Below, in pieces: positions 5,398-54,529 of a DNA stretch of 64,000 nt. The notes under the pieces are model-generated. The model was given only the letters and a program-made list of their open reading frames with translations. It did no database searches and had not been told where the DNA came from. The position numbers and the translations under genes were made by a program. The first letter of the stretch is position 1, and each line of letters begins with the position of its first letter. Source of the stretch: Dendrophyllia cribrosa (lineage: Eukaryota; Cnidaria; Anthozoa; Scleractinia; Dendrophylliidae); the NCBI GenBank assembly GCA_024195265.1, contig JAJLRJ010000006.1, forward strand, positions 17,577,141 through 17,641,140, in the 5' to 3' direction.

Positions 5398-5401
5398 AAA
5401 A

Positions 5402-7768: not shown

Positions 7769-7808
7769 AAACTTCAGTGTAGTTGGGCGTCCATGTTCTT
7801 CCACTAGT

Positions 7809-18546: not shown

Positions 18547-19720
18547 TTAAAGTCGTCTCAGTAGTGTTTGCCTCCTATTTGTCAGATAAGCACAAGTGGC
18601 AACAACTGGGAGAAATGACCTTCTATGACGAAAAGTTGAGGAAGAGGAGCGATAAACTTTTAGTCGTCCAATAGCATGCTCTACTGAAACCCGAATCCGC
18701 CTAAGTCGTCTATTTGCTCTTCTTTCTATTCTGTTCCTTGCTATCCTAAGGGGCCTCAAAAGCGGGTCACGCGCCGCATATCCTCCATCTGCGGCTAGTC
18801 GAGCTCGTCTGGGAAGGCGAAGGACTCCGTTTGCTCCAACTGAAAGGATATTTTGGTATTTTTGTGCGTCATTCAGATGACCCGGGAGTCTGAAATTCAA
18901 ATTAAAAAACACTTTCATTAATTTCATTTTCATTTTCATATTACGTAGTGAGTTTTTTCTTACCCAGACACAACCAGGACTATCATACCATTGGCGTCGA
19001 TAATAACTTGTGAAGACATAAAATGGAATTTTTTATCGCGCCGGTAAAATTCCCGCTGTAATCTTCCTCCCGTTGGCCTTTGTATCCGATGAACCGTACC
19101 ATCTATACACCCGACGACAGTAGGGAAATCTGGCCATGTGTTGAGGAAATTTCTCCAGCGTACAATGCTGGGCCAGGTCACAAAATGTCTGTACGAAACA
19201 AACAGTATAGGGATGATGTGGTATATGTCTTCATAAACAGTTGTTTTGCTTATAGCAAAAAGGGACGCTAAGACGCGATACGTAGGGTAAACTTTGAGCC
19301 ACATGATTGCAAGTAGAATCCTGGTGTTTACGTCAAGCAGGCATCTTCTCCTTCTATCTGTTCTGGGCGGGCGGTAGGTGCTTCGAGGGGAGCTAACTTG
19401 CAAACCAATGGTCCGTACTATTTCCTCAAAGCTATCTACTGTTTCCCCAGTTGCGTACCAGAAAAGCCGGTAAGTAACATATAGCTGTACAAGTCCTTTC
19501 CGGTGTTTCTCAGTGGTCGGAATCCAGGAAATAGTCGCTCGAGGAATGGTCCATGAAGGTTAATGTAAATCAAGATCACTGTCAAAAACTCTACTACCCA
19601 GATTGGAAATGGCGGTGGAATATTATTCGGAGCTAGTACAATTGGAGGAATTGCCAATAAGAATCCAATGAAGTTTGCAAACACAACCGGGAATGGCGGG
19701 GGGTCAAAACGTCTCGGCAT
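18547..19720 (-). pseudogene. Harbinger DDE nuclease (HARBI1-like)
   Basis: Minus-strand two-exon transposase. Exon 1 (19720 to 18964) starts MPRRFDPPPFPVV with unusual hydrophobic segments, then the helix-turn-helix (LLDVNTRILLAIMWLK, ISKTTVYED) and the first catalytic Asp in VVGCIDGTV. A 74-base intron (18890-18963; GTAAGA...TTTCAG) joins in phase to exon 2 (18889-18547) with the second Asp (LAADGGYA) and the Glu (SVEHAIGRLK). The DDE triad is complete. One frameshift lies near 19455 in a short T run, between GKDLYSYMLLTG and the TGETVDSFEE helix, so this copy is probably dead. It pairs head-to-head with the Myb-like gene at 20.35 kb. Confidence 0.85.
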
Positions 19721-28186: not shown

Positions 28187-28663
28187 TCAATACAAGCAGG
28201 CGTAGGGTTCACAAATTTTCAGATGTTTGTTGAGATAGCTTTTGAAGTTGTAGCGTTTGGTGGGCCTTCTTTTTTTGGTAATTTTGTAATCACCACCATA
28301 GAGCTCGTTATAATCAAAGGTCACACCATCCAGAGGCTCTAGGAGCCCGCAATTCTCACAGCGAAGTTCAGATGAAAACATCCTGAGGTTTAATTTACCT
28401 TCGCAGTTTTGGCAAGCTTTTATCCTTTCATTTAAAAGGGTGAAAGGTAGGTTGGGGTGGTATTGTGCCACGTGACAAAGACGCTCCTTGATGTGATGAA
28501 GGCGTTCTGGCAGGCTTGAACGCCGTATTTCCTTGTTGTAGTTGTCGAGTGAGCGTAGGAGGATAAATTTGTGTTCTTTATCCAGCTCATCGAGTTTAGC
28601 TTTGTATTTGCCTTTAGTGTCCAAGCGTCGTGCTTCAGCCAGTTGTTTAGCAAACTCCTCCAT
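28187..28663 (-). pseudogene. VLTF3-like viral late transcription factor, truncated
   Basis: 158 codons. A helical N-terminus is followed by a zinc ribbon (Cys84, Cys87 in KACQNCEG; Cys102, Cys105 in LRCENCGLL) and a basic KRRPTKRYNFKSYLNKH segment. In poxvirus A2-like late transcription factors and their relatives, a Cys4 ribbon is followed by a Tyr-x-Arg...His/Asn-x-x-x-x-Leu-Asn motif, which this matches. The family is normally longer, and here the frame stops soon after that motif, at the left junction with Harbinger DNA. The factor would switch on late capsid genes. ATG is preceded by TGTACAACA. Family call by motif only. Confidence 0.6.
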
Positions 28664-28741
28664 TGTTGTACACAGCCGTGTTGTCTATTCAATTGGGCAC
28701 ATAAGATTTATCCTTCGAAATGTAGAGGTTAAATCCAGAAT

Positions 28742-29428
28742 TTAATCTCTCAAATCGGACTTGGATGCTGCGGTGAGAAGACTTATCTTTTTTTGAAACT
28801 CTTGTTTGACTTCCTTGCGAAGTTCGTTTTTGAGTTTCTCGAGGTCTGGCGATTGTGTTTGAGTGGCAACGTCTTTTGATGCCTTCACACCATCCCTGAT
28901 TGCAGCCTTGAGTTCGTGATATTTTTCCACCTCACGAGTAATTATGGTGAATTCTGTATCACTGGTCCTCTTGTCTTCCAGAGCTTTTGAGACCAGCTCA
29001 TTGACAGAGTTGCGTTTAGCAAGGGCCAGTGTGTAGATATTCTCGTGTTTGGCTACTTTCCTCTCTAGCCGTTTGTTTGCAGTTGCAAAGCCAACTGAGG
29101 ACAGCCCGCAAAGCGTAGCAACACCGGCAAGTGCAGGGCTTGCAACAATGCCTAACCCGGTCAAGGCAGTGGCTAGGGCTCCTGATGACAGCCCAACAGA
29201 AAGCGACCCAAGTCCAACCGCCGAGTAATGAACTATTGATTGGGTCCGTTTGTATTTCTTCGCGACTTGCCTGTAGTGCTCGGCTTCGTCAGACAACTCC
29301 TTAAACAAGTCAGAGATCTTTTTGAGCCGGAAGTCTTCTGCATTGATTTGAGTGATCTCACGCATAGGGTAAAGTGATTGGGCATCACCGTATTCAGGGG
29401 CCGATGGCAGCACGTTCGCAGAACTCAT
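28742..29428 (-). CDS. Membrane/coiled-coil protein of the virus block, function unknown
   Basis: 228 codons, uninterrupted. The N-terminus carries SLYPMREITQINAEDFRLKK; residues ~64-117 form two long hydrophobic helices rich in Gly/Ala/Ser with a glycine turn (a hairpin membrane segment), and the rest is charged helix with coiled-coil character. From memory, similar proteins accompany related virus-like blocks in other cnidarians, but I know no function. It is flanked by the VLTF3-like gene (79 bp downstream) and the penton-like gene (34 bp upstream) on the same strand. The promoter TATATATACACACATCTGCC lies just before ATG. A virion membrane or core protein is a guess. Confidence 0.65.
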   Translation of the reverse strand: MSSANVLPSAPEYGDAQSLYPMREITQINAEDFRLKKISDLFKELSDEAEHYRQVAKKYKRTQSIVHYSAVGLGSLSVGLSSGALATALTGLGIVASPALAGVATLCGLSSVGFATANKRLERKVAKHENIYTLALAKRNSVNELVSKALEDKRTSDTEFTIITREVEKYHELKAAIRDGVKASKDVATQTQSPDLEKLKNELRKEVKQEFQKKISLLTAASKSDLRD

Positions 29429-29462
29429 GGCAGATGTGTGTATATATATGGCTTTATGTTTT
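29429..29462 (-). promoter_or_regulatory. TATATATAC-type promoter of the membrane-protein gene
   Basis: On the minus strand, CCATATATATACACACATC ends a few bases before the ATG at 29428. The same short TATATA-ATG arrangement precedes most genes of the block. Confidence 0.5.
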
Positions 29463-30149
29463 TTAATTTATTTCTACTTCAAATTCAAAGGGCATGTCAT
29501 TGAAGTCGAAGAGGTCATTGTTCTCATCCCTCACTGACAGTGATATGCTGTTTACATAGTCGCCAGAGGAGGTGTCACGCAAGACGTTCTGTTGTGTTGA
29601 TTCGTAAAAAACCTTCTCAAAGGGTTTTCCACGAACATCAAACCGAGCCAAAACTGTCGAAGGCTTACCATTGAGGAGGTTTTGTTCTTTATCGACCAGA
29701 TCACAGTGGATGAAGTAAGTGCTTGGTGCCCTCAAACGCTTGACGAATGATATTGGAAATATCAATTTAGAACTTATACCAAGCAGTTCGGTTAAATCGT
29801 GATCTAGTTTCACCTCTTCCGGATATCCTTTGGTAATGACCATTGAGCCAAATGGTGTGTCTGTCTCAGTTTCTAATTTATACTTGGCCAAGGAGGGGTG
29901 AGAGAATAGGTTTTCTAATTCTTTTGCCATAGACTCAAGAGTGTAATGCCCTGGAAGAAGTCTCCTGACAGTTCCTTCTTTACTCCCATTATTATCTCTA
30001 AACAATGTTATCTCTTCTCTTTGTTTCAAAGTATCCCACGAGTTGTAAATCGAGCAAGAGATAAGCTGGATGTAACTCGGTTTCAGAAGCGGGTGATCGA
30101 AGTAGATCGTGTGAGGATTCGAAGACGCGAGGATTGTTAGCAAAACCAT
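29463..30149 (-). CDS. Penton-like minor capsid protein
   Basis: 228 codons, uninterrupted. It shows the pattern of penton-like minor capsid proteins of polinton-like and adenovirus-related viruses: an N-terminal strand region (TIYFDHPLLKPSYIQL), LLPGHYTLESMAKELENL, a central DLTELLGIS block, and a C-terminal SISLSVRDENNDLFDFNDM strand pair ending in EFEVEIN. The protein would plug the capsid vertices. Part of this gene (30028-30121) recurs in diverged form at 37.6-37.8 kb inside a transposon. ATG preceded by TATATGCAATC. The fold call is by motif layout and gene context; a structure prediction would decide. Confidence 0.6.
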   Translation of the reverse strand: MVLLTILASSNPHTIYFDHPLLKPSYIQLISCSIYNSWDTLKQREEITLFRDNNGSKEGTVRRLLPGHYTLESMAKELENLFSHPSLAKYKLETETDTPFGSMVITKGYPEEVKLDHDLTELLGISSKLIFPISFVKRLRAPSTYFIHCDLVDKEQNLLNGKPSTVLARFDVRGKPFEKVFYESTQQNVLRDTSSGDYVNSISLSVRDENNDLFDFNDMPFEFEVEIN

Positions 30150-30201
30150 GATTGCATATATAAAAACATACTTTTAAAAAAATATAAATATATATACAAT
30201 C
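30150..30201. promoter_or_regulatory. Bidirectional promoter between penton-like and unknown gene
   Basis: The 52-bp gap between two divergent ATGs is almost pure A/T and has TATATGCAATC before the minus gene and TATATATACAATC before the plus gene, i.e. one TATA-type element per direction. Confidence 0.55.
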
Positions 30202-31931
30202 ATGTTTGACAGGCGTCACGGTGGATTCAACCCCAACCCGCTCCCGTTTTATTCTCCTCCAAATACTCTTCAGCCAAGGTATATCAGCAAACAACAGCCC
30301 ACAGTAGATCCTGAAATGGCTTGGATGAGTTCGCCGGAGGCTGCCAGGCTCTCTGCTGCTGCCAAGGCCAAGGCGATATCAGACTTCAAAACGCGTTTCC
30401 CAAATGCGGATATGTCAAAGTTTAGAATAGAAGTATGCTTTTCATAGAGGGCCCAGGCTCATGGGCGCTCATGGGCGCTCGTTTCAGACATAGAGCCAAA
30501 GCATTGGACTCAAGCCATGAAAGACGCCTTGGGCCTACACCAAGATGGAGGCTTCCCAAATCAGTTATCATTGAATAGGGGTCCAATCACAAAACTAATT
30601 CCGGCCGTTGAGTTTTCAAAAACAATAAGCAAACAAATGTCAGTTGGCGATGTCTTGGACAATGAGTACAAGATCTACGTAACGCCAACAGAGTTCTTCT
30701 CAACCAAGTTCAGGGAGATTTTCAAGGACTCACAGATTAAATTCACTTAATCTAAGTACGCAAGGAAGTGGCTTGGCGGGCCAAGCATTTCTTTCTGGCC
30801 ACAGCAGCTAAACTTTGCTTTGTGGTGCGCGACAACAGGCTCTGGGATCTCTCGCGATATTCTGTTCCCCTCCTCCCTAGACCTCACCCCGCAGCTCAGG
30901 TCTTTTTATCTGTTCCACGTCTATTTCACAACAAGACGAATCCTCTATGAGTTGGGCGGGATACAGAGTTTCTCCGCTCTGCCCAGCGATCCAACATTCA
31001 ATCAGCAAGAAAACAAATACGACATCCCCTCTTACAACAGGATATGTGCGGAGTTCGGTGTCGCCCCAAGCACTGACTTCCGTTTCACATTCGGTAAAAA
31101 CCATGGCCTTGGCAGTGTTTACATTTGGATCGCATATGAACAGCATAGTCCTGTCGATTACACCTACCCCGACCCCGATCTAGCTTTGTTCGACGATAAG
31201 CGCGTAACAGACAGAAATGACCCGAATTACAAAGGCTAACGGAATTTCTTACATTCTCAATGGCCCCTCGGCTAACCAGTTCGAGCACTTTGTCCCAAAG
31301 CTCTCACAGGGGTTAACACAAGCAGGCCTATCGCGAATGAATCAGTCAATCGAGGCCTTTGTCTGCTGTGTCCTTGGCGCTCAGGTGAACACGCGAAGCA
31401 GCATTCTTGGTGCAGGCGGGCGGGCCAAGGAGACGCAGAGTGATTTTCTAGTCCTCATGGAAGACACAATCAGAACGCCAGACATTTCCAAGAGCGTACA
31501 GCGTTTTCAGCTAGCCATCCAAGAGGCAAAGGTGCGTTTGGACTTTGCAGTGGCACCCGGATGCTGGCTAATGCCGTCACGCATGGTTATCAACACAGAG
31601 AGCGTGGTTGCGTACAATAACTAGTTGAAGGAGGCAACTCAAGGGATGAAGCTGGGAGTGAACAATGATGTTAATGTGGGGACAAAAAAAGCCTCACTTC
31701 ACCTCATGGATGGTGGACCAACAAAGATTAATCCACCAAACAGCCATCCATCAAACCCGATACATAGAGGCTACACAGGCACAGGGCGCGCCAGCCCCAA
31801 CCACAAGCAGAACACCATATCCCACGCCAACCACAAGCGCGCCAGCACAACCCGACCTGCATCACGTAAACAAGGCACTCATAGCTGTGAGTGCGCTTGC
31901 TTTGGCAGGCCCTATCGTTTGGTTTAGATAA
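30202..31931 (+). pseudogene. Large conserved virus-block protein with C-terminal membrane anchor, unknown
   Basis: The remnant spans ~575 codons from MFDRRHGGFNPNPLPF. The first 1,040 bases are one frame with stops at 30445 (TAG) and 30748 (TAA); a frameshift near 31220 leads to the next part, which has TAG at 31622; another frameshift near 31775 leads to a Pro/Thr-rich linker and a C-terminal transmembrane segment (KALIAVSALALAGPIVWF). A 10-base tandem duplication (GGGCGCTCAT) lies at 30461-30480. Two halves are apparent: an N-terminal part with WPQQLNFALWC and a C-terminal part with SRMNQSIEAFVCC. Its size and position beside capsid genes suggest a structural protein; no function is known to me. 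Confidence 0.6.
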
Positions 31932-31940
31932 GCGCAAATC

Positions 31941-33234
31941 TCAAGACCTCGCACGCTTGGTGATCCTTTCAACCAGGAAGGCCACCACGGCAAGGATGAG
32001 CAGCCAAGTGTGTTCACCCAGAAAGGAGATGACCGACCCAGCCGCTTTGAAGATGAAGCTCACAATTGAGCCGATAAGGCCAGGCAGGGCGCCGGCTGCC
32101 TTTTTGCCAAGCTCTTTAAGCCCATTTCCAATAGCCTTGGTGGCCCTTGCCAGGCCATTCAAGGTGGCGAGTGGCGAGTACCGCAGCGTTGATGGTTATG
32201 CCAGCTGCCAGAACAACAGCTTGCAGTGTCCATCCGTATTTCTTCAAGATATTTTTGATCCTCTCTCTCAAAGGCAGGGCAGATGGAGAAGTGTTCTCAT
32301 CCTCTATCACGCGTCTGTCTTCCTCGTTTTCGCGTTCAAGTTCGGCTTCTTTTTCGTTTAACTCATCAAGGGGTTTAGTAGAGTTAAGTCTGGCTTCAAC
32401 TTCATTTCTTTCCTTCTCTTTAGCAGAAAGTCGTGTTTTGAGTTTGTCAACCTTTGCCTGTTCTTGGTCTCGTTTTTGTATTTTTTGAAGGGCACCTAAT
32501 TCTTTTTTCTGGGTTTCAAGATCGCCTTGAAGATTCTTTTTTAGCAGTTTTAAGTGCTCTATCGCGGATTGATTTTCAACGCTTGAACCGTGTTCCTGCT
32601 CCAGATTGTCAATCCTCGCTTGAGTTTGCTCAATTCTGTTTCTGAGGTTTTGCACCTCATTTGCTGCTTGTTGTTGTTCTACAGCAATTCTTTCATTCTC
32701 CTTCAGTTGTTTTTCTGCCTCCTTCAATCTTTGTCTTTCTTCCCTTATTGATGCATTGTCTTCAGAGACAAGCTCTTCAGCGCTTGGGCCAAGAGATTTT
32801 TCGAACTTGTTTGTGAATGTTTTAAGAAGGCCTGACCCATCTTGCTTGAAAATGGGAGTTTCGCCACCCTTTGGACCAAAGGAAACTATTTTCGCTTCAT
32901 TTCCTCTCCTACTTTTTCTGAAACCAATTGGGCCTAGACTTTTGACATCCACTTTTGGAAATCGCTTTTTGATCCAGTCCACAGCTTTTGCAACTATTTT
33001 TGGTTGATCATCATCATGTATGAAGCCCTCAAGCAGCCAGGGGGATGTCTTCAGGATCAAATCCACTCTGCTTAGTAGGCAGCCTGACCATTTCATGCTG
33101 CTCGCCGCCATGCCGCCTGGTTGAAAGGGGGTTGTTGTGTCAACTTCTTCTTCGTCGTCATCATCGTGGTCTATGTCCCAGTCAAGCCCTGTATTCTCAT
33201 TCTCACCAGGTATATCATATCCGCCTTCAGCCAT
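31941..33234 (-). pseudogene. Acidic coiled-coil protein with multi-pass C-terminus, frameshifted
   Basis: From ATG at 33234, 372 codons: acidic start (DHDDDDEEEVD, residues ~22-32), a globular part with KRFPKVDVKSLGP, a long coiled coil (residues ~160-320) and a membrane segment (~340-358). The frame is thrown off at ~32165 by a tandem 7-base duplication (GGCGAGT twice on the plus strand, 32165-32178). The other frame (31941-32162) carries two more hydrophobic helices and a basic end (ERITKRARS). The two parts evidently were one gene of ~445 codons. Coiled coil plus membrane helices would fit a virion membrane or core-associated protein; function unknown. Confidence 0.65.
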
Positions 33235-33277
33235 GATGATATATAAATATAAATTTTAAAACACAAATATATATACC
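33235..33277. promoter_or_regulatory. Bidirectional promoter before the major capsid-like gene
   Basis: A 43-bp A/T-only gap between divergent ATGs, with TATATATCATC before the minus gene and ATATATATACC immediately before ATGG of the capsid-like gene. Confidence 0.6.
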
Positions 33278-34529
33278 ATGGCTGTGCAACCGAATCTACT
33301 TCCATCTCACAGTGAAAAGACACTGGGAGCCATGAAGGCAGAGTGAACCGTCAAGCGCATCACATTCAACCCCTCTAAGGCCAATCCCGGCGAGACACTG
33401 TACGTCTCGGTGCCCAAGCTGGGCGAGCACGATGTCATCGTCTCTGGCTCGCTGGCCCTTGTGTTCAACATCAACCTAGCCGGGGGCTACGCTAACAACT
33501 ATCTCATGCAAAATGTTTCTCGGGCCCTGGTGGACAGGCTCGTTATAAAGTTTGCCGCAACCACCGTCCAGGACACGGTTGGGTACAGCATTTACAAGAT
33601 CTTCGAAGACCTCTTCCGATCAGCGTATGAGCGGGAAAATATGTTTTTGGAGGGCATCCAGAGTGTGGATTTGTGCAAGATACGCTCTGGTGCTGGCGAC
33701 AAGAAGACCTCCGGCGTGGATGCAGAAACCAAGCTGGAGACAATATATAAAAATAAGTATCGCATCAACCTCAATCACCAAATCTTAACTAATCACAGTG
33801 TCTTCTACCCGCAGGCGTTATATAACGATCTGGTTTTCGAGCTCACCCTCGCCGATGCAGCCCACGTTGTCCGGGGTTCAGATACAAGTAAGCTTGTTTA
33901 CAAATTGGAAAACCTCCAGATGGAGTATGAGACAATAAGAAGTAAGAGTCTGGCTGACGAGGCAAAACACACCTACGACACTGGCAAGGAGTTCGCCTAC
34001 GATCTCGTCATGAGAGATCGGGTGCATCCATTTTCAAAAGGCGGGGACTCTCGTCTAAATCTTCGGGTGAACCCGCAGCGCCGGTCACTCAAGGGCATCC
34101 TCCTGCTCTTCATCAACCCCTACACGGCTGGCGGCAGGGAGTCTGAAAAATATTTCAACCCCGACATCACCAAAGTGAAGGTCACAGTCAATGGTGTCCC
34201 CAACAGGGTTTACAACGAGGGCATCAGTGGTACTGACATGTGGAGGGAAATATTCCGACAATATAATGTTGGCTCTCGCGATGCACGGCCCAACATGAAC
34301 CTGACCAAATATCTCAGGCGACAAGTTTGGCCTCTGGATTGACCTTCGGTCCATGGTTGACACAACCATGCACGGCAACGGCCAATGGCTCGTGAACACA
34401 CAGGATGGCGTGCAACTTGAGATTGAAAGAAACACCACCGGCTCGGGAAATACAAACTGCCACATCTTCACCATCTCAGACTCGCAGATGAACATCATGA
34501 GCAGGCAGCTGGAATCTGTCCAGTACTAG
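33278..34529 (+). pseudogene. Major capsid protein, double-jelly-roll type
   Basis: About 415 codons from MAVQPNLLPSHSEKT. The sequence PKLGEHDVIVSGSLALVFNI, a REN...GIQS helix-loop and a second half with SLKGILLLFINPYTAGG, SGTDMWREIF and a C-terminal IDLRSMVD...NGQWLVNTQDGVQLE follow the double-jelly-roll capsid pattern of polinton-like viruses. A premature TGA at 33344 splits off the first 22 codons, and a frameshift at ~34320 splits off the last ~65; otherwise the frame is clean. The packaging ATPase gene starts 25 bp downstream. Visibly GC-rich. Two defects mean this copy cannot give a complete capsid protein. Confidence 0.65.
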
Positions 34530-34554
34530 GACACACTAATATACACCGGCCCCC
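34530..34554 (+). promoter_or_regulatory. TATACA element before the packaging ATPase gene
   Basis: CTAATATACACCGGCCCCC separates the capsid-like stop from the ATG at 34555; the TATACA string sits ~9 bases before the start, as at other genes of the block. Confidence 0.4.
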
Positions 34555-34978
34555 ATGCCCACAAGCAACAAGCAACAAGCATTCAAATTCCTTAATAAGC
34601 TGGCTCCACTGCCATCCACCAGGCCACTATCATACAATGAAATACAAAAACTTCTGGCAAAGACGCCCTCCCCACCAACACACGAACCAACTAATATAGG
34701 TGTTGGTGATGGACCCAAGAAAGCTGCCTTTCAATGCACTAATCGTGGGCCCCACTAACTCTGGCAAGACACAGTATCTTCTAAACCAACTGCGACGCCC
34801 TTTTAAAGGTTATTTTGACTACATCGTTTTATTCTGCCCCACATTTGTCAAGAACAAGACATACGATGGCTTCGTGGACTGCGATCCGCGAATCTTCGTG
34901 ATTGTCTGCCAAGAGCATGAGATTGAAGACTAGTTGAAGTTGGCGAGCTTCTTTTTCACATGCACCAACACTCTATTC
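34555..34978 (+). pseudogene. A32-type DNA packaging ATPase, 5' part
   Basis: Begins MPTSNKQQAFKFLNKL with a Pro/Ser-rich lead, shifts frame near 34705, and continues as the ATPase core with the Walker A loop VGPTNSGKT (34745-34771) and FDYIVLFCPTF. A TAG at 34931 interrupts the same frame, which then goes on to ACACTCTATTC at 34978, where a transposon pair is inserted. The 3' part with Walker B resumes at 38040. FtsK/HerA-type packaging ATPases pump viral DNA into the capsid. Three separate defects (frameshift, stop, insertion) make it a pseudogene. Confidence 0.8.
34973..34978 (+). repeat. Target-site duplication CTATTC (left)
   Basis: CTATTC here and at 38034-38039 flank the transposon pair; one copy belongs to the ATPase gene, whose reading frame would be continuous across it. 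Confidence 0.7.
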
Positions 34979-35192
34979 TCATTGCCAAAAAGTGTCACGA
35001 AATCAGCCGTGCGGAATTTTCTTCCCGCTTTTGGTGCCACGGGTGAATTGATCATTAGGCTACTACTCCCCGGGGGTTCTAATTACCTATTTAAGATTCG
35101 TTTTCTGGTATTTTTTGCCAAGTTACGCGTTCGGCGTCGTTTGTCCAGAATATTTTTTCAAGTCATCGCTAACGTCGCTGAAGCTCTTGTCT

Positions 35193-35354
35193 ATGGCTGC
35201 TCCTGTCCGGCCTGATCCGGCTGCGTTGGCTGCTCTGCAGAACCCCGTTTCTGATCCGCCAGCACCCGCAGGACCTGTCCAAAACCCTGACCCACAAAAT
35301 GCTGATCAACTGCAAGTGGTATGGGTTTCATTTCTATCTTATTTATTGCGCTAG
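35193..35354 (+). CDS. Candidate first exon of a transposon A gene
   Basis: ATG at 35193, just downstream of the TATTTAAG site, opens a Pro/Ala-rich frame (MAAPVRPDPAALAALQNP) that changes character after NADQLQ, where possible splice donors lie (GTGGTATGG). The stop at 35352 may be intronic. A T/C-rich tract ending CCTTTCCAG at 37243 could be the matching acceptor. Speculative; no family recognised. Confidence 0.35.
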   Translation: MAAPVRPDPAALAALQNPVSDPPAPAGPVQNPDPQNADQLQVVWVSFLSYLLR

Positions 35355-35994
35355 TCTTAGCCGTTGTTCTTCTCGTTGTTCGTGGCGTTTTTCGCTTGTC
35401 CCGTTCGCTTCGTTGTACTTTATTAGTTTTGCCTCATGCTTCGCTTCTTTAAGCCCTCTTTAGTTCTTTCGCTTTTTGTCGCGCGCTACTTTGTTTCTCT
35501 TCGTGTTCGTTGTCGTCTTTTTTGTTTCACGTTTCTGTTGTGTTTTGGCCGTTTTCACCATTATTTCTCGTTGCCTACCTCGGGTGGTTTTCCCTTTGGC
35601 TCGTTTACCTTCGTTTTCAGTTCCTTTGTCTTGGTATTTTTACGCCTTTGCACGCCTGGTTTTTCGTTTCTTTTGTCAGTTTCGCTGTCGTATCATTTTC
35701 CTTTGCTTTCAGTGCCCGTTTTGTTCACTCTCTTGCGTTTTAGTTTTGCCTCTGTTGTTTTTCGTGGCGTTCGGTTTATCTCGGTTCTGCTCGTTTGGCC
35801 CTTCTTGGGCCGCTTGTTCCCGCTTTGTTCCCGCTCGTGTTTTGTGTTATTACTTGTTGGTAGGGCGTTTGCTTACCCACTCGTTTTCCTAGCTGTTTTC
35901 AGTACTCGCGTCTCTAGGGTTATTAGTCGGTTTTCGGTTTATTGTGTGTCGGGCATTATTCGGTTCCTCGGGTTTCTAGATTTTTCAATTGCTC

Positions 35995-36775
35995 GGGTGT
36001 TTAGTGTTTTCGTCGGGCGTTTCTGGTTGCTTGTGTGTCGAGCGTTTTCAGTTGCTCGTGTGTCTAGCGTCTTCAGTTGCTCGTGTGTCTAGCGTCTTCA
36101 GTTGCTCGTGTGTCTAGCGTCTTCAGTTGCTCATGTGTTAAACCTTTTCAGTTGCTTGTGTGTCGAGCGTTTTTGGTCGCTCGTGTATCAAACCTTTTCA
36201 GTTGCTCGTGCGTCGAGCGTTTCCGGTTGCTCGTGTGCCTAGCCTTTTCAGTTGCTCGTGTGTCGTGCGTTTTTCGGTTGCTCGTATGTCAAGTGTTTCG
36301 GTTGCTCGCGTGTTATGTGTTTTCAGTTCCTCGTGTGTCGTGTGTTTTCGGTTTCTCGTGGGTCGAGCGTTTTCAGTTGCTCGTGTGTCAGGCATTTTCG
36401 GTTGCTCGTTTGTCGCGCGTTTGTAGTCGCTCGTGTGCCTAGCGTTTTCAGTTTCTCGTGTGTCTAGCGTTTTCAGGTGCTCGTGTCTCAGGCGTTTTCA
36501 GTTGCTTGTGTGTCGAGCGTTTTCAGTTGCTCGTGTGTCGGGCGTTTTCGGTTGCTCGTGTGTCGAGCGTTTTCGGTTGCTCGTGTGTCGGGCGTTTTTG
36601 GTTGCTCGTGTGTCGGGCGTTTTCAGTTGCTCGTGTGTCGAGCGTTTTCAGTTGCTCGTGTGTCGAGCGTTTTTTCAGTTGCTCGAGTGTCGAGCGTTTT
36701 CAGTTGCTCGTGTGTCGAGCGTTTTTTGGGTTGCTCATGTGTCAAGCGTTTTCAGTTGCTCGTGTTTGCTTGTTC
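35995..36775 (+). repeat. Minisatellite, ~25-bp unit, about 30 copies
   Basis: Tandem copies of GTTGCTCGTGTGTCGAGCG-TTTTCA (25-26 bases). Copies are most regular at 36480-36720 and decay toward the left. All three forward frames stay open through it because of the repeat, giving spurious Cys/Ser/Val/Phe-rich ORFs. It lies in what would be the intron of the transposon A gene. Confidence 0.9.
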
Positions 36776-37243
36776 CCGGCTATTTAATTTGTTTATTTTG
36801 CGCTGTTGTTATTTTTGCCTCTGTGTATTACCGGCTGTTAGGTTTGTCTTTTATGCGCCGGTTTAGTTTTGTCTCTGTAATTCCTACAACTGGCCATTAA
36901 AGTTTGTTTTCTTCTGCGCTGGTCTAAGTTTGGTCTCTGTACTTTACCGGCTTCTCATGTTTGTCTTATTTTGTGCTGTTTTAATTGTCTCGGTTTTTCA
37001 CTGGCTATTTAGTTTGTCCCATTTTGCGCCGCTGTAGTCTCGGTTTATTTTTTCGCCCCAGTAGGCCCCGACCCCATCCTCCTCCTTGCCGTGACCAGAA
37101 GGGTAATCTTATTCATGCCCAATAACCTGTTTTAGGACGGGTTCCTGGTCCGGCTCAGCTGGCGGATTCTTTCCCTCCCTATTTTTGGCTTCGCTCTCTT
37201 TCTTCCACGGTTTTAGCTTCGTTCTTTTCTCCTCCCTTTCCAG

Positions 37244-37468
37244 TACTGTACATCTGCTTCGTTTGCCGCGGCTCTTATGGAGGCTCAAGCAAACCCACGC
37301 TCGTTGCGGTGGTGCGATTGGGAGGGTAATCCTGTCAGCTGGGCCGGACCTTTACCGTCTATTGAGATGGTTGCCTTCCTTTCTGAGTTTTGGAGAGGAA
37401 CTCTTATTAAAGTTGCTCGTTTCCTCCGGTTTGGTAGTCCCTGTCTCTTCGTCCGTAACGTTGGCTAA
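37244..37468 (+). CDS. Candidate second exon of a transposon A gene
   Basis: Behind a CTCCTCCCTTTCCAG acceptor, an open frame of 74 codons (YCTSASFAAALMEAQ..., with RWCDWEGNPVSW and FLSEFWRGTL) ends at a stop 70 bases before the element's right end. Sequence is non-repetitive and protein-like. It is not recognised; joining it to 35193 is inference. Confidence 0.35.
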   Translation, partial: YCTSASFAAALMEAQANPRSLRWCDWEGNPVSWAGPLPSIEMVAFLSEFWRGTLIKVARFLRFGSPCLFVRNVG

Positions 37469-37541
37469 ATTTTGCCTCCCATATCTTATTCCGCTAAGGC
37501 GGTGAGTGTCTCTTTTTGGCAGTGAGGATTGTTTACTATTC

Positions 37542-38033
37542 TCATTGCCAAAAAGTGTCACGAAATCAGCCGTGCGGAATTTTCTTCCCGCCCTGGAAGT
37601 AAGGTAACACCACGTGATGAGCCATTAGGGGGCGGGGTTGCCGGTGAAATCTGTGCTTCTTCTTTCAAATTATGCCAAGAGTTGAAAATTGAGCAAGGGA
37701 CAAGACGGATATAACTCGGTTTCGTCAGTGGGTGCTCGAAGTAGATCGTGAGAGGCTTTTGGTGCCCCGGGTGAATTGATCATTAGCCTACTACTCCCCG
37801 GGGGTTCTAATTACCTATTTAAGATTCGTTTTCTGGTATTTTTTCCCTCTTTTGCCAAGTTACGCGCTCGGCGTCGTGGTCCAGAATATTTTTTCCCTCC
37901 CCCCTCCCCTTCGGCGACGTTCCGGTACACTTTCCTCACTGTCTTGCGACCTCCTGCCAAGGCTAAATTTTGCCTCCCATATCTTATTCCGCTAAGGCGG
38001 TGAGTGTCTCTTTTTGGCAGTGAGGATTGTTTA
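37542..38033 (+). mobile_element. Transposon B, short relative of A, carrying a virus gene piece
   Basis: A 492-bp element in tandem with A, separated by one CTATTC (37536-37541). Left ~55 bases and right ~75 bases match A almost exactly, and the middle CCCGGGGGTTCTAATTACC...CCAGAATATTTTTT is also shared. B lacks the coding and minisatellite interior and has ~160 extra bases near its left end (37598-37757). It behaves as an internally deleted derivative of the A family. Confidence 0.7.
37598..37757 (-). pseudogene. Captured fragment of a diverged penton-like gene
   Basis: Minus strand. 37664-37756 aligns without gaps to 30028-30121 of the penton-like gene, with ~16-17 mismatches in ~93 bases by eye, many at third codon positions. 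The protein similarity (TIYF-HPL-KPSYI-L) continues to the LLPG motif at ~37605, so about 50 codons are recognisable. The donor was not the penton gene of this block but a relative of it. The fragment is absent from transposon A. Confidence 0.75.
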
Positions 38034-38039
38034 CTATTC
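38034..38039 (+). repeat. Target-site duplication CTATTC (right)
   Basis: Right copy of the 6-base duplication around the transposon pair; see 34973-34978. Confidence 0.7.
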
Positions 38040-38369
38040 ATACTCGATGACTGCGCCGCCTCCAAAGATGTCAAACGCCGCAAGAGTCAGCTGGTCAATC
38101 TGGGGTTCAGTGCAAGACATGACGGCATATCCGCGTGGGTCTTGACCCAGCAGATCGCCAGCATTGCCAAGCCATACCGTGATAATATCGCAACGATCGT
38201 GCTCTTTTACACGCCCTCCAGCAAGACTACCAAGGCCATCTTCGAAAACTATGCCAGAGAGCTCTCCAACGAGGAGTACAAAGAGCTTATCACAAGGCTC
38301 AAGTCCCGCAAGTTCTCACACCTGGTATTCTCACTGAGGCACCCGTATGGAATTGAGTACAAGATGTAA
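38040..38369 (+). pseudogene. A32-type DNA packaging ATPase, 3' part
   Basis: Resumes the ATPase at the Walker B strand: ILDDC (38040-38054) directly follows the codons Leu-Phe of the left part across the CTATTC duplication. It continues with NLGFSARHDGISAWVLTQQ (the sensor-like Arg-His and Gln-Gln motifs of this family), SIAKPYRDNI and the C-terminal LRHPYGIEYKM, stopping at 38367. This part has no defects. Together with 34555-34978 it would give ~250 residues, usual for small-virus packaging ATPases. Confidence 0.85.
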
Positions 38370-38389
38370 ATACAGTATGAATATACAAT

Positions 38390-38634
38390 ATGGCTATGAA
38401 TGCGCCAACCAACCTCCACAAACTCACAGTGCTTTCTCAGCTTTTGGATGGCTTGCGCACACACACGCTTGATGCGCAAAACAAAATTATCAAGCCGCTG
38501 GCGAGGAGGATCTGCGCCTCATGCTTCTCAACAGATATCCATTGCGGCTGAATTCTATGCCGGACACCATGGCGGGGCTTATACGGGAGCTTGAAACCCT
38601 TTTGCCCGACATCAAGAGAATTATTGAAAAATAA
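38390..38634 (+). pseudogene. Small virus-block protein, frameshifted
   Basis: ATG at 38390 follows ATATACAAT. It starts MAMNAPTNLHKLTVLSQL and is helical; the frame shifts near 38500, and the continuation ends in ELETLLPDIKRIIEK with TAA at 38632. Total ~80 codons. No family recognised. Position between the ATPase and the next gene, with the shared TATAC motif, supports a real gene. Confidence 0.45.
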
Positions 38635-38648
38635 AAACAAAAACAAAC

Positions 38649-38668
38649 ACATATGTATACTCTTGCTG
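38649..38668 (+). promoter_or_regulatory. CACATATGTATACT promoter motif
   Basis: The string ACACATATGTATACT occurs here and again at ~39831-39845, each time just upstream of a gene of the block; it extends the TATAC motif seen elsewhere. Confidence 0.5.
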
Positions 38669-39386
38669 ATGGCACAAGCACAAGAAGAGCAGATGCTGGA
38701 GGCCACCCCTGATACCACACCTCCCACAGGGATAGCCGGTACCAGTGACAATTCCTGCCAAACGTGAGAAGCTAGCAATCCTCGTTTCTACTGGCAAGGC
38801 CAAAGAAGCTATCGGCGTGCAGCTCACACACGATCATGTCAAGCAGCTGTCAGACAAGGACATTGACAAGTACTGCAAAAGGTACGAAGCCTATATCGGC
38901 AACAAGACAACCAAATCCCTAGTTGATTCCGCTATCATGCTCGTGTCCAAAGGCGTTGGCATGGTGATCCCGGTTGAGGATGTCAAGGAGTTGCAGCAAG
39001 AACTCAAGAACGACTACATAATCAACCAGGAGCTGTCAAATCTTGCTGGGGCTCTTGCCATGCCATGCGGACGATGGCTGGCGCTTGCCAATGCTGCTCT
39101 CATCACGACAAAACACATCAAGATTGAACGAGAGCCTGATCACAAGCCTGACTTGATAGAATTGGAACCCCAACCCACACATCCAAGCAGAGACAGTGAA
39201 GGCTATCCACTTGAGGGCTTTGATGAAGTTGGTGTTAATCTGGCAGCAATCTGGCAGCAACCTCGCAGCAACCTTGAAGGAACCTGGCTGGAACCTTGCA
39301 ACAACCTGTCAGCACACTTGTCACATTTTGCAAAAATAAAATTTACATATATACACGATGGCCACACCACTCGAGGCGATCCCTGA
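38669..39386 (+). pseudogene. Helical virus-block protein of unknown function
   Basis: ATG at 38669 (MAQAQEEQMLEATPD) is followed by a frameshift near 38735; the main frame (38745-39386) is then open. The core has SLVDSAIMLVSKGVGMVI and ELSNLAGALAMPCGRWLALANAALITTKHI-type helices, plus an acidic linker. The end is repetitive (CTGGCAGCAA-type units at 39238-39310), and the frame overlaps the next gene's start, so the true C-terminus is probably before ~39.36 kb. From memory, similar helical proteins occur in related cnidarian blocks; no function is known. Confidence 0.5.
39340..39357 (+). promoter_or_regulatory. TATATACAC element before 39358 gene
   Basis: TTTACATATATACACG ends directly before ATGG at 39358, the clearest single example of the block's promoter pattern on the plus strand. 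Confidence 0.55.
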
Positions 39387-39822
39387 AGAAACTCAAACTC
39401 CAACCCCAACCCCTGTCAGTGTTACCTCTGAGACCCCGAAAACAAAGCCTGCAACAGAAAAGAACCCCGGCCGCGTTGCTTCTGGTAAAAGACTAGCAGA
39501 ACGCAACCGCGTGGCCCGTGAAGCGAAGAAAAAAGCCGAAGCACAAAAGACTGCACCCTCAACACAGTCCAGTGCTGCAAACCAACCCTCAACAAGTGAC
39601 ACCAACACAGAATCATCAAGCAACAGCAACTCTATCTACCTTATTCTGGGAGTTGGTGGGTTGATTGTCTCTACTGCGGGTGTGTACTACCAACGCGAAG
39701 CCATAATGCAAAAGCTTGGACGCACACCAAACACACCACCAACACCAGCGCCGACCCCAGAGCCCGCTGCACCACCCCCATTTCGAATTCCAGTAAGACA
39801 AGGAATTAGAAAATTGGAATAA
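39358..39822 (+). CDS. Single-pass membrane protein of the virus block
   Basis: 154 codons, intact. Pro/Thr-rich start, a basic helix (NPGRVASGKRLAERNRVARE-AKKK, residues ~36-60), a Ser/Asn-rich linker, one transmembrane segment (SIYLILGVGGLIVSTAGVYY, ~91-110) and a Pro-rich tail (TPAPTPEPAAPPP) ending RQGIRKLE. The basic helix could contact DNA or capsid, and the membrane segment suggests a virion membrane protein. No family name known. The gene starts right after a TATATACAC element and ends 17 bases before the next promoter motif. Confidence 0.6.
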   Translation: MATPLEAIPEETQTPTPTPVSVTSETPKTKPATEKNPGRVASGKRLAERNRVAREAKKKAEAQKTAPSTQSSAANQPSTSDTNTESSSNSNSIYLILGVGGLIVSTAGVYYQREAIMQKLGRTPNTPPTPAPTPEPAAPPPFRIPVRQGIRKLE

Positions 39823-39835
39823 AAAACTAACACAT

Positions 39836-40077
39836 ATGTATACTGCACACAAACCACGTCTGACAACAAGCTTGTGAAGGCTATCCTCGACGCCGCAACA
39901 ATCACTGGCCTTGTCGCTGGTATTGGTTGGATTGGGAAAAAGACCATCAAAGAAAACTTCACTGCCGACCCCAGTGCAAGCTTGATGAACTACGTCAAGT
40001 TCACAGCCGTCATGGCTGGCAGCATCGCGCTGAAGAAATATCTCGAGGACCAGAAAATCCTCCCAGACAACATGTAA
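39836..40077 (+). pseudogene. Small two-helix membrane protein, start disrupted
   Basis: The protein-like frame (39850-40077) reads TTSDNKLVKAILDAATITG, a Gly-rich hydrophobic helix, then LMNYVKFTAVMAGSIALKKY and a short charged end, stopping with TAA. The ATG at 39836 (ATGTATACTGCAC) is out of frame with it, so a small indel has hit the start. Around 70-75 residues. Unknown function; small membrane proteins of this kind recur in the block. Confidence 0.5.
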
Positions 40078-40105
40078 ATATGGCAACCATCTCAGCCAAA
40101 ATGTA

Positions 40106-40132
40106 AAAATCATATTTATACACACCACCACA
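40106..40132 (+). promoter_or_regulatory. TTATACACACC element before 40133 gene
   Basis: ATCATATTTATACACACCACC precedes the ATG at 40133, matching the TATAC pattern with a longer spacer. Confidence 0.4.
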
Positions 40133-40588
40133 ATGGCCTCGATTGCAATAATGGCCCTTGGCGCTGTTCTCAATGCGGCCGCTTTCACGGGTGGCAACTA
40201 TCTCGCGAAATATCTGTCTGGTGATAGCGGAAAGGCAGCATTGGATGAGAAAATCTGTCACAACAAAGCCCTGGAACAATACCAAGCGGCTTACGCCAAA
40301 TACCAGAAGGACCGAACCAAGCTCCTCGACTGGATTGCAACCAACGATCGGATGAAACACCAAGCTAGCCAAAACTTCCAAACCACCGACCAAACCCTGG
40401 CCTGGTATAACCAGATGCACCAAACACAACCAGATAAACAAATAAAAGACTACAAAGAGCCTCAGTTCTCGGACTTCTATAAGCCCAGCCCACAACAGCA
40501 GACTGGTGAACTTGTGTTCATTGGAGGCAACTCCCTTCGGAAGGTACAGGTGGAAGAGACTCCCATTTGGATTATCCACATCAAGTAA
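40133..40588 (+). pseudogene. Virus-block protein truncated by a gypsy insertion
   Basis: From ATG at 40133: a Gly/Ala-rich hydrophobic start (MASIAIMALGAVLNAAAF), a long charged helix (HNKALEQYQAAYAKYQ-KDRTKLLDWI), a Tyr/Gln-rich part and SDFYKPSPQQQTGELVFIGG. At ~40530 the sequence passes into Ty3/gypsy reverse transcriptase DNA, and the last ~20 codons of the open frame are out-of-frame RT sequence. The natural C-terminus, expected to be a second hydrophobic helix, is lost. Function unknown. Confidence 0.6.
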
Positions 40589-43195: not shown

Positions 43196-46100
43196 GACTT
43201 TTGCTGTTCTTCCGTAGTGAGTCCGATTGTAAAATTACTTCAGTCAGTATCAAAGAAGAGAGCTTTCAGAGAGGGTAAGATATCGCTTATCTATAAGCAG
43301 TGACATGCAATTTTTGCTACGATTTCAAGCTGGTTTCTATACACTGCAATAATAAGTATGTCCCTTCGTTTAACCAAAGTAACTTTTATTTCCTTGTGTA
43401 GGGGAGTTCATGACAAAATAATTCTTGGTTAAAGCCCTCTGCTAGATGATACTTCATCAAGTGCTAGCTCCAGTGAAGATAGGTGTGTTTCATCTCTCTC
43501 TCTCACGTGTTGGTTGGTTTACGTGTTATCGTTTCTATACGTCAGTTAAAGTTTCATATCAGATGTTAGCTATGGAAAGTCATAGACTGGTAGAGGAAGA
43601 GTAATGGGAGTTTCAGTAGGCCGGATCGTTTTCAAGTTGAGCTTTACATAAAGCTAAGATTAACATTTGACTGTTTTGAAGTTACAGGCTTTTGACTTTG
43701 CTTGTTGTTTTTTTAAATTTTATTTTATAGCTCTTCCGAGCTGGAGAAGATATCATTAAAACATATCTCAAAGGAGGACATGAAATATTTACGAGACCAA
43801 ACAAGCTTGCCATATCTTCCATGGGAAGACAACTTTACCTCTAAAGAGCTCGCGCAGTATCTGTTGAATCCTCCCAGTTTTGCAATTTGTAAAGATAGAC
43901 CAGCTGTTTGCCAAAAGAACGCTATGTTTGTTATTGATCGAGAAATACTTGCAAGTGACGACGACCTGTAATCTGACGACTTCTCTTGGAGAAATAATGG
44001 CACGAAAACCGCCACTGTCAAGATGAAGCAGACAACTTGCGTTCTATTAAGGACCTACTTTGTGCACACAAAATATAAAGACTTCAAGCGTAGGATCTAC
44101 AGTCTCTGTAAGTCAAATCGCACCCCAGGCCAGTACATCATGCTTTGTTATAAATTTGAGGACCGAAAGAGAACACGAAGTATCTCCATGTAAGAAAGCC
44201 CGTATGCAGCCATCGACATTACAGGCGATAAAGAAGAAATTGAAGTCAGGTAAAAGCTCTCGAGATGTCTACGTGGAGGCACGAGAAGAGGCAGGTGGTC
44301 TTTCAGCTTCCAAGGTTTCTGCTAGGCCGCGTTCGATTAATCAGGTTCAAAAAGTTAAAGAACGTTCAATTCACCGCCAAAGCAGCAAGTACACTGCAAG
44401 ACCAGGCCAAAAAGACTAACTTTATTCTGTGATTTTGAAATGTATTGACGACAGCACAAATTCCAATAGATTTCTTCAATTTGTTCAAGGAGCGCCTCAG
44501 CCACTTGCGTTTCTTGCTGATGACCGTCAGCTTCTCGACTTGGAACGATTTTGTACAAATCCATCCAAGCCAGGAATACTGAGCATCGACACCACTTACA
44601 ACTGTGGGGAATTCTATGTCACACCAACTACATACCGGCATCAATTGCTTTTGTCGAAAAGAACGGGCAAGCATCCAATGTTACTCGGGCCGACGCTTAT
44701 CCATAAACATCGAGATCGTGAGGCCTTTAGCTATCTGGCAAGCTCTATGATCAGACTTAAACCATCACTGACGCGAATTCTAGCTGTAGGTTGTGACAGA
44801 GACAAAGCAATTAAGAACGGACTGACTCCTCATTTTCCGTGTGCAGTTTTCTTGGCTTGTAAAAAGCACTTCGAGGACGATATTCAACGAAAGCTTACAG
44901 AACTTGGATTGAATGGTAATGAGAGGAACCAAATTGTTGCTGATATCCTTGGTCTTGAAGTGACGAGAGAGAGGGGCTTGATTGACCGCACCACCGAGCT
45001 TGACTTCGATAGGGACCTGGAAGAATTGGAGCAAGTTTGGAATGATCGTAAAAAAGCAGCTTGACGAACAAGTGCGCCTGAATTTCATTCGTGGTTTGTG
45101 CGTTACCAAGCCAAAGACGTGAAAGAAATGCTCCTCTATCCAGTTAGACGGGATGTTGGTTTAGGACATGATTTCTACTACAATAACGATCCAGAATCTG
45201 TGCATCGTAATATTAAGGCAAGACAGAACTACAAGGCCACCGAAATGCCAACGGTTGTTGAAAACATCCGCAAGGAAAAGGACGCCAATCTCTGTTATGT
45301 TGAAGATGCTATCATTGGTAATGGCCCCTTTGAGTTGGCTCCAGAGTTCGCACATTTTCAAGTTGACCAACACTTTTGGACATATCAGTGGTCGGAGGAG
45401 AAAAAGCAGAGACATTTACGCCAGTTTCATGAAGCCCTTTCCACTGATCCGTTGCGTATTGGGAGCTCAGCACCAAGAGCAGACGATATTAACCAAGAAG
45501 AATAACTGGAAAGGGAGGAAGGACAACAAGAAGAAGGCGAAGAGACCCCAGCTGAAGAAACACGGGAAGAAAGTGAAAAGATATCTACACCACATTTGCT
45601 CTCCGTTCCTTTTTGCGAGACTGGCTTATCTTCAGTGTTTTTACCATCATACAACAAAGCCTCCTGCTTGCTTCTTAGCAGCACAAACGTCGTGAAAGCT
45701 CCTGGAGACCATAACGGCTTTCTCGTTGCGAGTGATACCGAGGCAGCTCCTTACTTTGTGGCTGTAAAGGAAAACGGAACCTGCATTTGTCAGTGTAAAG
45801 GTTTCAAAACTGCTTCCCTTTGTTCCCATTCACTTGCCGTTGCCGAACATGTTCTCAAACTGGAACAATACATTTCCTGGTTTCATTCTCGTGGTGGCCC
45901 AAACATCACAGCAGCAGCGTCAACGTCCGCACCCAAGAATACTGGGAAAAAGCCTGGCCGGAAGTCACGTGTCAGGCAAAGTAGAACCAGCACGTCGTCG
46001 AAAAACGATGACAGCTACGCAGACAGGCGCCCGTACGTTGAAACTGCAAGTCCCCTAAGTGAGCAGCGGTACCACTTTAAATGGCTAGACAAGACGACAG

Positions 46101-50929: not shown

Positions 50930-51190
50930 AGCCCATTTCCCTAGATGTCTACCTGGAAGGTCGACTAGTGGCTATGGAGCTGGATACAGGGTCTGCTGTA
51001 TCTATCATGAGCAAGAGTGTATCATGAGTACCTCCGTCATGTGCTCTTAAAGGAAACCACATTGAAGTTACGTACCTACACTGTACTGTACCTATGTGAC
51101 TGTGCAATTTAATGGACAATCTAAGGAGCTCCCAATCCACGTGGTACAGAGTGGCTAGAGTCGATTCATCTGAACTGGCCACTACTTACA
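50930..51190 (+). pseudogene. Gypsy 2 protease remnant
   Basis: The frame reading DVYLEGRLVAMELDTGSAVS contains the aspartic protease active site Asp-Thr-Gly-Ser at ~50980-50991. Stops and frameshifts follow quickly. The protease would cut the polyprotein; only the active-site region is recognisable. Confidence 0.7.
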
Positions 51191-52015
51191 TTGGAAACAT
51201 CTGGTACCCACCTATTGCTAGCAGATGTTTTGGATAAACATGCGAGAGTTTTCTCTAAAGGACTAGGCAAGATGAAGAATATTCAGGCACGACTCTACCC
51301 AAACGAAGGGACAAAGCCTCGATTTTGGAAAGCCCGCCCTATTGCACTGGCTCGCAAACCGATAGTTGAAGAGGCTTTGAAGGAGTTAGAGGCTGAAGGG
51401 GTGATTAAGAAGGTGGCAACCAGCGAATGGGCAGCCCCCATCGTAACGTCCGTCAAGAAGGATGGCTCTGTGAGAGTATGTGGTGACTTTAATGTGACTA
51501 TTAATTCACAACTAGAAGTCGACGAGTATCCTCTTCCACACATAGATGACATTTATGCCAGTCTTGGTGGGGATACACTGTTCAGTGTCATTGACCTACG
51601 TCAAGCCTACTTACAAATGACTGTTGAGGAACAATCGAAGCCCTACCTCACTGTCAACACACCCCGTGGCCTATACCAGTTTCAGCGTCTACCTTATTGC
51701 GTGGCTTCAGCACCAGCAATCTGGCAGCGAGCAATGGACCAGGTCCTACAATGCATACCTGGGGTTTTCTGCTATCTTGATGATATCATAGTGACTGGCC
51801 AGACTATGGCAGAACACCTTGAGAGGCTTGATGCGGTGTTGAGAAGGCTAGAGGAGTACGGTTTGAAGGCCAACCGGGAAAAGTGTAAAGGAACGGACCA
51901 TTAGAAAAGTGATGGGGGGTTAGGGCGAAAACAAAAATTCGTGCAAGCTGAAAATCCCCCACCTCACCCCCCATCACTGTTCTAATGGTCCGTCCCTAAA
52001 TTCCGCAGATGCTTT
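51191..52015 (+). pseudogene. Gypsy 2 reverse transcriptase, split by a 107-bp MITE
   Basis: Open from 51191 to the MITE at 51890. Motifs: LEAEGVIKKVATSEWAAPIV, the first catalytic Asp region FSVIDLRQAYLQM, and the YLDD box (residues 195-198 of the frame, FCYLDDIIV). The usual LPFG before the palm is LPYCVASAPA here. After the MITE the frame resumes with FRRCFVEYLGHVIS. Apart from the MITE this RT is well preserved. Confidence 0.9.
51886..52000. mobile_element. 107-bp MITE in the gypsy 2 RT
   Basis: 51890-51996 has inverted ends (GGAACGGACCATTAGAAAAG; TTCTAATGGTCCGTCCC) and a G/C-tract interior, flanked by TAAA on both sides (51886-51889 and 51997-52000). Removing element plus one TAAA rejoins the RT reading frame (AAG TGT AAA TTC), which fixes the insertion point exactly. 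Confidence 0.9.
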
Positions 52016-54520: not shown

Positions 54521-54529
54521 CACACACTG

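What the first reader, a model, noticed from the sequence alone, without database searches (positions are those of the whole stretch)
28187..40530. Integrated small dsDNA virus with VLTF3-like, penton, major capsid and A32 ATPase genes
One compact two-strand block holds the morphogenesis set of bamfordvirus-type viruses plus at least six further proteins without known function. A VLTF3-like factor next to a small-virus capsid set, with no polymerase B or integrase visible, does not fit a standard Polinton/Maverick or adintovirus and points to a polinton-like or mriyavirus/yaravirus-like lineage infecting cnidarians. Established: these four families define the group. Inference: lineage placement.
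Basis: partly seen in the sequence, partly recalled or inferred. Interest (0 to 1): 0.85.

Follow-up and report, generated by a model that had tools for sequence, protein, structure and literature searches.

The report
Broken Maverick virus with transcription-factor gene
A stretch of animal DNA, probably from a coral or its kin, holds a decayed, end-clipped copy of a Maverick (Polinton) virus-like element that is repeated many times in the same genome, and its relatives carry an unexpected gene that resembles a factor that starts transcription.

The parts
28187..28663 (-). VLTF3/TFIIB-like zinc-ribbon gene, 3' part missing (left break of the element)
   Evidence: tblastn of P0122 covers 1-158 of 239; TFIIB-like fold of the full-length relative P0122; 141 homologues
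28742..29428 (-). 228-aa conserved protein, frame intact
   Evidence: ORF; matched in 19 of 20 other copies beside the VLTF3-like gene
29463..30149 (-). penton / minor-capsid candidate, 228 aa, frame intact
   Evidence: 1200 homologues; fold not tested
30202..31931 (+). broken copy of a 557-619-aa conserved protein (stops and frame changes)
   Evidence: three-frame reading; open in L011, L013, L014, L016, L017
32116..33234 (-). coiled-coil-like protein, shorter here (372 aa) than in L013 (461 aa) and L016 (504 aa)
33278..34526 (+). major capsid protein candidate (about 417 aa), with an in-frame stop and a frame change
   Evidence: tblastn; 2057 homologues; 121 scored matches in own genome, itself included
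34709..34933 (+). packaging ATPase, N-terminal piece with Walker A GPTNSGKT
   Evidence: intact 199-aa relative hits Pox_A32 1.2e-14
34979..38033 (.). foreign insert splitting the ATPase (limits read by eye): 25-bp tandem array, internal duplications and a copy of a penton-gene fragment (37591-37755)
38034..38369 (+). packaging ATPase, C-terminal piece
   Evidence: Pox_A32 E 0.004, under the cut-off
38680..39386 (+). decayed copy of a roughly 207-aa conserved gene
   Evidence: P0014 match at 38751-38909; open in L018, L019
39358..39822 (+). 154-aa protein with a hydrophobic segment
   Evidence: P0014 match; relatives in L018-L020
39862..40077 (+). small protein (about 70 aa)
   Evidence: three-frame reading
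40133..40540 (+). 145-aa conserved gene, 3' end replaced by a Gypsy-type RT reading (right break of the element)
   Evidence: 145-aa relatives in all eight right flanks L018-L025; RT reading of the continuation by eye

Best explanation
The block is a decayed, twice-truncated, insertion-broken copy of a Polinton/Maverick of about 17-18 kb. In complete copies a YqaJ-type exonuclease and a family-B polymerase are read inward from the two inverted repeats. A retroviral-type integrase inserts the element with a 5-bp duplication. The centre encodes capsid and penton candidates, a packaging ATPase and further small proteins (shown: gene content and ends; inferred: protein-primed replication, packaging and particle formation). 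Its special feature is a small TFIIB-like factor (zinc ribbon plus one cyclin-like repeat), possibly related to VLTF3 of nucleocytoviruses. I infer that it is made early and directs transcription of the structural genes, whose starts share a TATATATAC-type box. The confidence given is for the Polinton identity; the transcription-factor role I put at about 0.6, true VLTF3 ancestry at about 0.4.
For: rve integrase 5e-7, YqaJ 5e-18, Pox_A32 1e-14; DNA_pol_B_2 1.6e-13 for one polymerase type, and the other type aligned to it at 99.4% probability, with exonuclease and polymerase motifs; inverted repeats 247-352 nt and lengths 16,975-18,190 bp in 5 copies; 5-bp duplications, 4 of 5 perfect; integrase and PolB in 8 of 8 right flanks, integrase or PolB in 19 of 20 further probes; VLTF3-like gene in 7 of 8 left flanks and 19 of 20 probes; TFIIB/BRF1-type matches; weak Pox_VLTF3 hits; dN/dS medians 0.11 ATPase, 0.20 integrase, 0.24 capsid, 0.59 VLTF3-like; start-codon motifs.
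Confidence: 0.93

Rival explanations
1. A mriyavirus/yaravirus-like small relative of giant viruses integrated in the host.
For: VLTF3-like gene together with capsid candidate and A32 ATPase; weak Pox_VLTF3 hits.
Against: Complete copies are 17-18 kb with integrase, PolB, inverted repeats and target duplications; mriyaviruses are 35-45 kb and carry VLTF2 and RuvC (PMC11253617, passages), for which the products scanned gave no hit.
Confidence: 0.03
2. A polinton-like virus (PLV) without polymerase and integrase, lying beside or inside an unrelated Polinton.
For: Short capsid protein (about 417 aa); no protease found; two sea-anemone Polintons are published with PLV-type capsids (PMC4642659, passages).
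Against: One pair of inverted repeats with matching duplications encloses the capsid gene in 5 copies, and integrase and PolB follow the structural block in 7 of 8 right flanks in the same orientation, in the eighth (L022) in an inverted element. A chimeric origin of the capsid block remains possible.
Confidence: 0.04
3. The zinc-ribbon gene is not a transcription factor but another small helical zinc-binding protein (for example a DNA-binding or packaging accessory).
For: Weak family hits, moderate Z, highest dN/dS of the genes tested (0.59).
Against: 26 of 33 structure rows are polymerase II or III initiation-complex entries whose matched chain I take to be TFIIB or BRF1 (titles name the complex, few the chain); the zinc ribbon precedes the cyclin-like part as in TFIIB; the weak Pox_VLTF3 hit lies in the same helical part.
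Confidence: 0.35

Closest known systems
Maverick/Polinton elements (class Polintoviricetes)
   Same: Length, (AGT)2//(ACT)2 ends, inverted repeats, family-B polymerase, rve integrase, packaging ATPase, capsid-type genes (ends and sizes as in PMC8097293, section 7 and passages)
   Different: 5-bp target duplication; TFIIB/VLTF3-like and YqaJ genes; no protease found; two polymerase and end types
Sea-anemone (Nematostella) Polintons with PLV-type capsid (PMC4642659, passages)
   Same: Probably cnidarian host; rve integrase and pPolB with an unusual capsid; cnidarian capsids fall outside the main Maverick cluster (PMC10120064, section 9)
Maverick fraction of coral genomes (PMC12005156, passages)
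   Same: 5.20%, 6.74% and 1.41% of three coral genomes annotated as Maverick, so high copy number is expected
   Different: The passages seen give no gene content
Pox_VLTF3 (PF04947) of Nucleocytoviricota
   Same: Zinc ribbon then helical domain; weak hit in the helical part; in megavirus the VLTF3-like gene is expressed before the morphogenesis genes (PMC11464507, passages), as inferred here
   Different: Below the curated cut-off; carried by a Polinton

Membership tests
Polinton/Maverick | protein-primed-type family-B DNA polymerase | tested here: met
   PF03175 1.6e-13 for the L020 type; the commoner type has no Pfam polymerase hit but aligns to it at 99.4%. Terminal-protein domain not tested. 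Absent from the window copy itself
Polinton/Maverick | retroviral-type (rve) integrase | tested here: met
   PF00665 5.2e-7, just under the gathering score (30.3 against 32.6 bits); NCBIfam IS481 transposase model 6e-15, under its cut-off; in 8 of 8 right flanks and 16 of 20 probes. Absent from the window copy itself
Polinton/Maverick | terminal inverted repeats with AG(T)-type ends | tested here: met
   AGTAGT..., 247-352 nt, 77-97% identical in 5 copies. Absent from the window copy itself
Polinton/Maverick | short target-site duplication (6 bp in vertebrate Mavericks) | tested here: met
   a duplication is present but 5 bp: 4 of 5 perfect, 1 with one mismatch; a sixth copy lacked a right end in the piece fetched
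Polinton/Maverick | A32/FtsK-type packaging ATPase | tested here: met
   Pox_A32 1.2e-14, over the cut-off
Polinton/Maverick | double jelly-roll major and single jelly-roll minor capsid proteins | tested here: inconclusive
Polinton/Maverick | Ulp1-type protease (in the majority, not all) | tested here: inconclusive
   no peptidase hit among the gene products scanned; two small products were not scanned
Polinton-like viruses (PLV) | lack of pPolB and rve integrase in most | tested here: not met
   both present
Mriyaviruses | 35-45 kb genome with VLTF2, VLTF3, RuvC | tested here: not met
   17.0-18.2 kb in 5 copies; no VLTF2 or RuvC hit in the products scanned
VLTF3 (PF04947) | profile score over the curated cut-off | tested here: not met
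   best 15.4 bits against 25, in 2 of 3 divergent members that are near-identical to each other; none of 20 others nor of 4 more main-subtype members
VLTF3 / TFIIB-like factors | zinc ribbon followed by a cyclin-like domain | tested here: inconclusive
Adintoviruses | gene set and capsid type of the proposed family | not tested
   paper not held

The most novel reading that the evidence does not exclude
Animal Polintons of this lineage run their own early-late transcription programme with a true VLTF3 homologue: a minimal TFIIB-like factor expressed from an early-type CCAATTGAA promoter that switches on structural genes carrying a TATATATAC box at the start codon. VLTF3 would then not be a private gene of Nucleocytoviricota but would have been exchanged with, or inherited from, polintoviruses.
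Probability: 0.3. Interest if true: 0.75.

Novelty: new variant of a known kind. Interest (0 to 1): 0.5.

Why it matters
The mriyavirus paper (PMC11253617, passages) calls VLTF2 and VLTF3 diagnostic of Nucleocytoviricota because no homologues were detectable outside that phylum, and marker tools use VLTF3, A32, PolB and capsid to call giant viruses (PMC12638062, passages). A VLTF3/TFIIB-like gene kept at one position in 26 of 28 copies examined of an animal Polinton would weaken that marker and could make Polintons look like giant-virus insertions. It also suggests how a small DNA virus could time its late genes. Many copies with open capsid frames, low dN/dS and gene swapping suggest a recently active, recombining lineage.

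Tried and rejected
Scans of IMG/VR viral contigs with capsid, VLTF3-like alignment, penton, capsid alignment and ATPase queries found no relative; they rest on exact short peptides and miss distant relatives. A VLTF3 motif pattern (recalled) found one contig whose frames look phage-like (L001). A Walker-A pattern found 10 loci, none with a convincing relative (best ATPase tblastn E 0.003). Pfam on 20 VLTF3-like members gave no Pox_VLTF3. Literature searches (among them VLTF3 with polinton or cnidarian, TFIIB with polinton and integrase, YqaJ with polinton) showed no report of a TFIIB/VLTF3-like gene in a Polinton. I saw listings, and passages of the papers named; of the three hits for polinton, TFIIB and integrase I opened two (PMC11464507, PMC12638062: both mean giant-virus genes), not PMC6563490. 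Most subscription papers are missing from the library, and the adintovirus paper is not held.

The shared early motif of exonuclease and polymerase is not independent evidence, since both starts lie in or near the inverted repeats. CCAATT also stands before the ATPase frame in 2 of 3 rows, is missing before YqaJ in 1 of 3 and PolB1 in 1 of 3, and VLTF3-like has it in 4 of 4; the promoter classes are suggestive only. A 6-bp duplication was considered: by taking one end base with it, 2 of the 4 perfect cases fit; rejected.
Full report
WHAT IS THERE. The window lies at G000:C19:17577141-17641140 of a 627-Mb, 22-contig genome. Reading the block on both strands gave the genes listed in parts. Direct family searches gave almost nothing except Pox_A32 for the ATPase C piece (E 0.004, under the cut-off; PHROGs uninformative). 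Protein searches found large families: capsid candidate 2057, VLTF3-like 141, penton candidate 1200 proteins at E<=1e-3, 120 listed each. All those listed are from ENA contigs without names, and several contig lengths (for example 934311 and 1043059) recur between tables. Database proteins also preserve the order: P0014 runs from capsid into homologues of the 38.7-kb and 39.4-kb genes, and P0066 and P0097 run from capsid into the region of the ATPase start.

THE COPY IS BROKEN. The VLTF3-like gene matches a full-length relative only over residues 1-158 of 239. At the other end the 145-aa gene turns into a reading typical of a Gypsy reverse transcriptase at about 40.55 kb (by eye). The capsid gene has an in-frame stop and a frame change, the 575-aa-type gene several lesions, and the ATPase a stop and an insert of about 3.1 kb that holds a 25-bp tandem array and a copy of a penton-gene fragment.

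WHAT OTHER COPIES SHOW. The own-genome search gave 1458 first-look candidates; 121 were scored, the window included, and all 121 matched, the others at 84-92% identity. Five rows list stops inside the matched stretch; the matched stretch leaves out the start of the gene, so the window row too counts as 'none'. I fetched 10-kb left flanks of 8 copies and right flanks of 8 others. Left of the VLTF3-like gene lie a YqaJ exonuclease (5e-18; RecE-like PHROG 4e-25) and a 129-aa frame. Right of the ATPase lie several small genes, an rve integrase (5e-7) and, on the opposite strand, a large polymerase. One polymerase type hits DNA_pol_B_2 at 1.6e-13. The commoner type has ADFES, YLDANNLYG, KLMNNSVFG and YTDTDS motifs, carries an endonuclease VII domain and aligns to the first at 99.4% probability over 415 columns, but has no Pfam polymerase hit itself. 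Integrase and PolB occur in 8 of 8 right flanks; in L022 they lie in an inverted element without the ATPase in between. In 20 more copies, 450-bp probes show integrase in 16, PolB only in 3, neither in 1.

ENDS. Left ends begin AGTAGTATAGGG and right ends mirror them; a second end type begins AGAGTAGT. In the 5 copies where I found both ends the element is 16,975, 17,346, 17,406, 17,831 and 18,190 bp long, with repeats of 247-352 nt at 77-97% identity. Flanking duplications are 5 bp, perfect in 4 and with one mismatch in 1; in a sixth copy no right end was found in the 2 kb fetched. Vertebrate Mavericks have the same (AGT)2//(ACT)2 ends, mean size 16.9 kb, and 6-bp duplications (PMC8097293, section 7 and passages).

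HOW IT MAY WORK. TATA lies within 25 nt of the start codon in 43 of 52 rows and in at least one row of 14 of 17 gene classes, against 85 of 807 of all ATGs in the element parts tested. In the nine structural and membrane classes (228 aa, penton, 575 aa, coiled coil, capsid, 207, 169, 129 TM, 145 aa) every row has TATA and none has CCAATT within 50 nt. The VLTF3-like gene is the reverse: 0 of 4 TATA, 4 of 4 CCAATT. Polymerases (3 of 4 rows) and the exonuclease (2 of 3) have CCAATT, but these lie in or near the inverted repeats and are not independent; the ATPase (2 of 3) has it too and does not fit. I infer early transcription inward from the repeats and of the factor, then late transcription of structural genes, as in megavirus, where the VLTF3-like gene precedes the morphogenesis cluster (PMC11464507, passages). 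Replication, packaging and particle formation are inferred from gene families only.

SELECTION AND MOSAICS. Median dN/dS among copies: ATPase 0.11 (6 pairs), integrase 0.20 (6), 575-aa gene 0.21 (10), capsid 0.24 (10), penton 0.35 (3), VLTF3-like 0.59 (10); pairs are not independent. Copies L011 and L013 are 90-99% identical over the left half except across the 575-aa gene, where 300-nt windows fall to 71-86%, as in a gene swap.

COMPARISON AND NOVELTY. Mavericks occupy 1.41-6.74% of three coral genomes (PMC12005156, passages). Two sea-anemone Polintons have PLV-type capsids, suggested to be chimeras with pDNAP and rve integrase (PMC4642659, passages). Cnidarian capsids fall outside the main Maverick cluster (PMC10120064, section 9). 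So the element is a variant of a known kind. The unreported part, as far as the searches named go, is the TFIIB/VLTF3-like gene. Host: GFP-family exons (14 matches in two clusters) fit a cnidarian; a test against amphioxus did not complete.

Noticed in passing
L011 6700-8500 against L013: Gene swap: across the 575-aa-type gene 300-nt windows are 71-86% identical between copies that are 90-99% identical on both sides.
   Followed up: partly
L020 (reverse strand) and L079 against the other right flanks and probes: Two PolB types; in L020 the rarer one goes with a second inverted-repeat type (AGAGTAGT).
   Followed up: partly
L044, L047, L049, L050, L061: A second VLTF3-like subtype, 32-36% identical, at the same position.
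   Followed up: partly
window 34979-38033: Insert with a 25-bp tandem array of about 30 copies, repeated CTATTC flanks and a captured penton-gene fragment from a related element.
   Followed up: partly
L022 and L012: Pieces of two elements seem to lie joined in these flanks.
   Followed up: no
window 5393-7275: Reverse-transcriptase RNase H followed by a tyrosine recombinase (PF00589 2e-12): DIRS-like by recall.
   Followed up: partly
window 7689-8492, 18547-19559, 60195-62820: HTH_Tnp_4/DDE_Tnp_4 transposase pieces (for three frames), Harbinger-like by recall.
   Followed up: partly
window 44420-45064, 51125-51904, 54503-56236, 58381-59067: MULE-type transposase, reverse transcriptase, retrotransposon integrase and endonuclease pieces.
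   Followed up: partly
window 16654, 17533, 23052: Three tRNA-Ser(AGA) predictions, perhaps tRNA-derived repeats.
   Followed up: no
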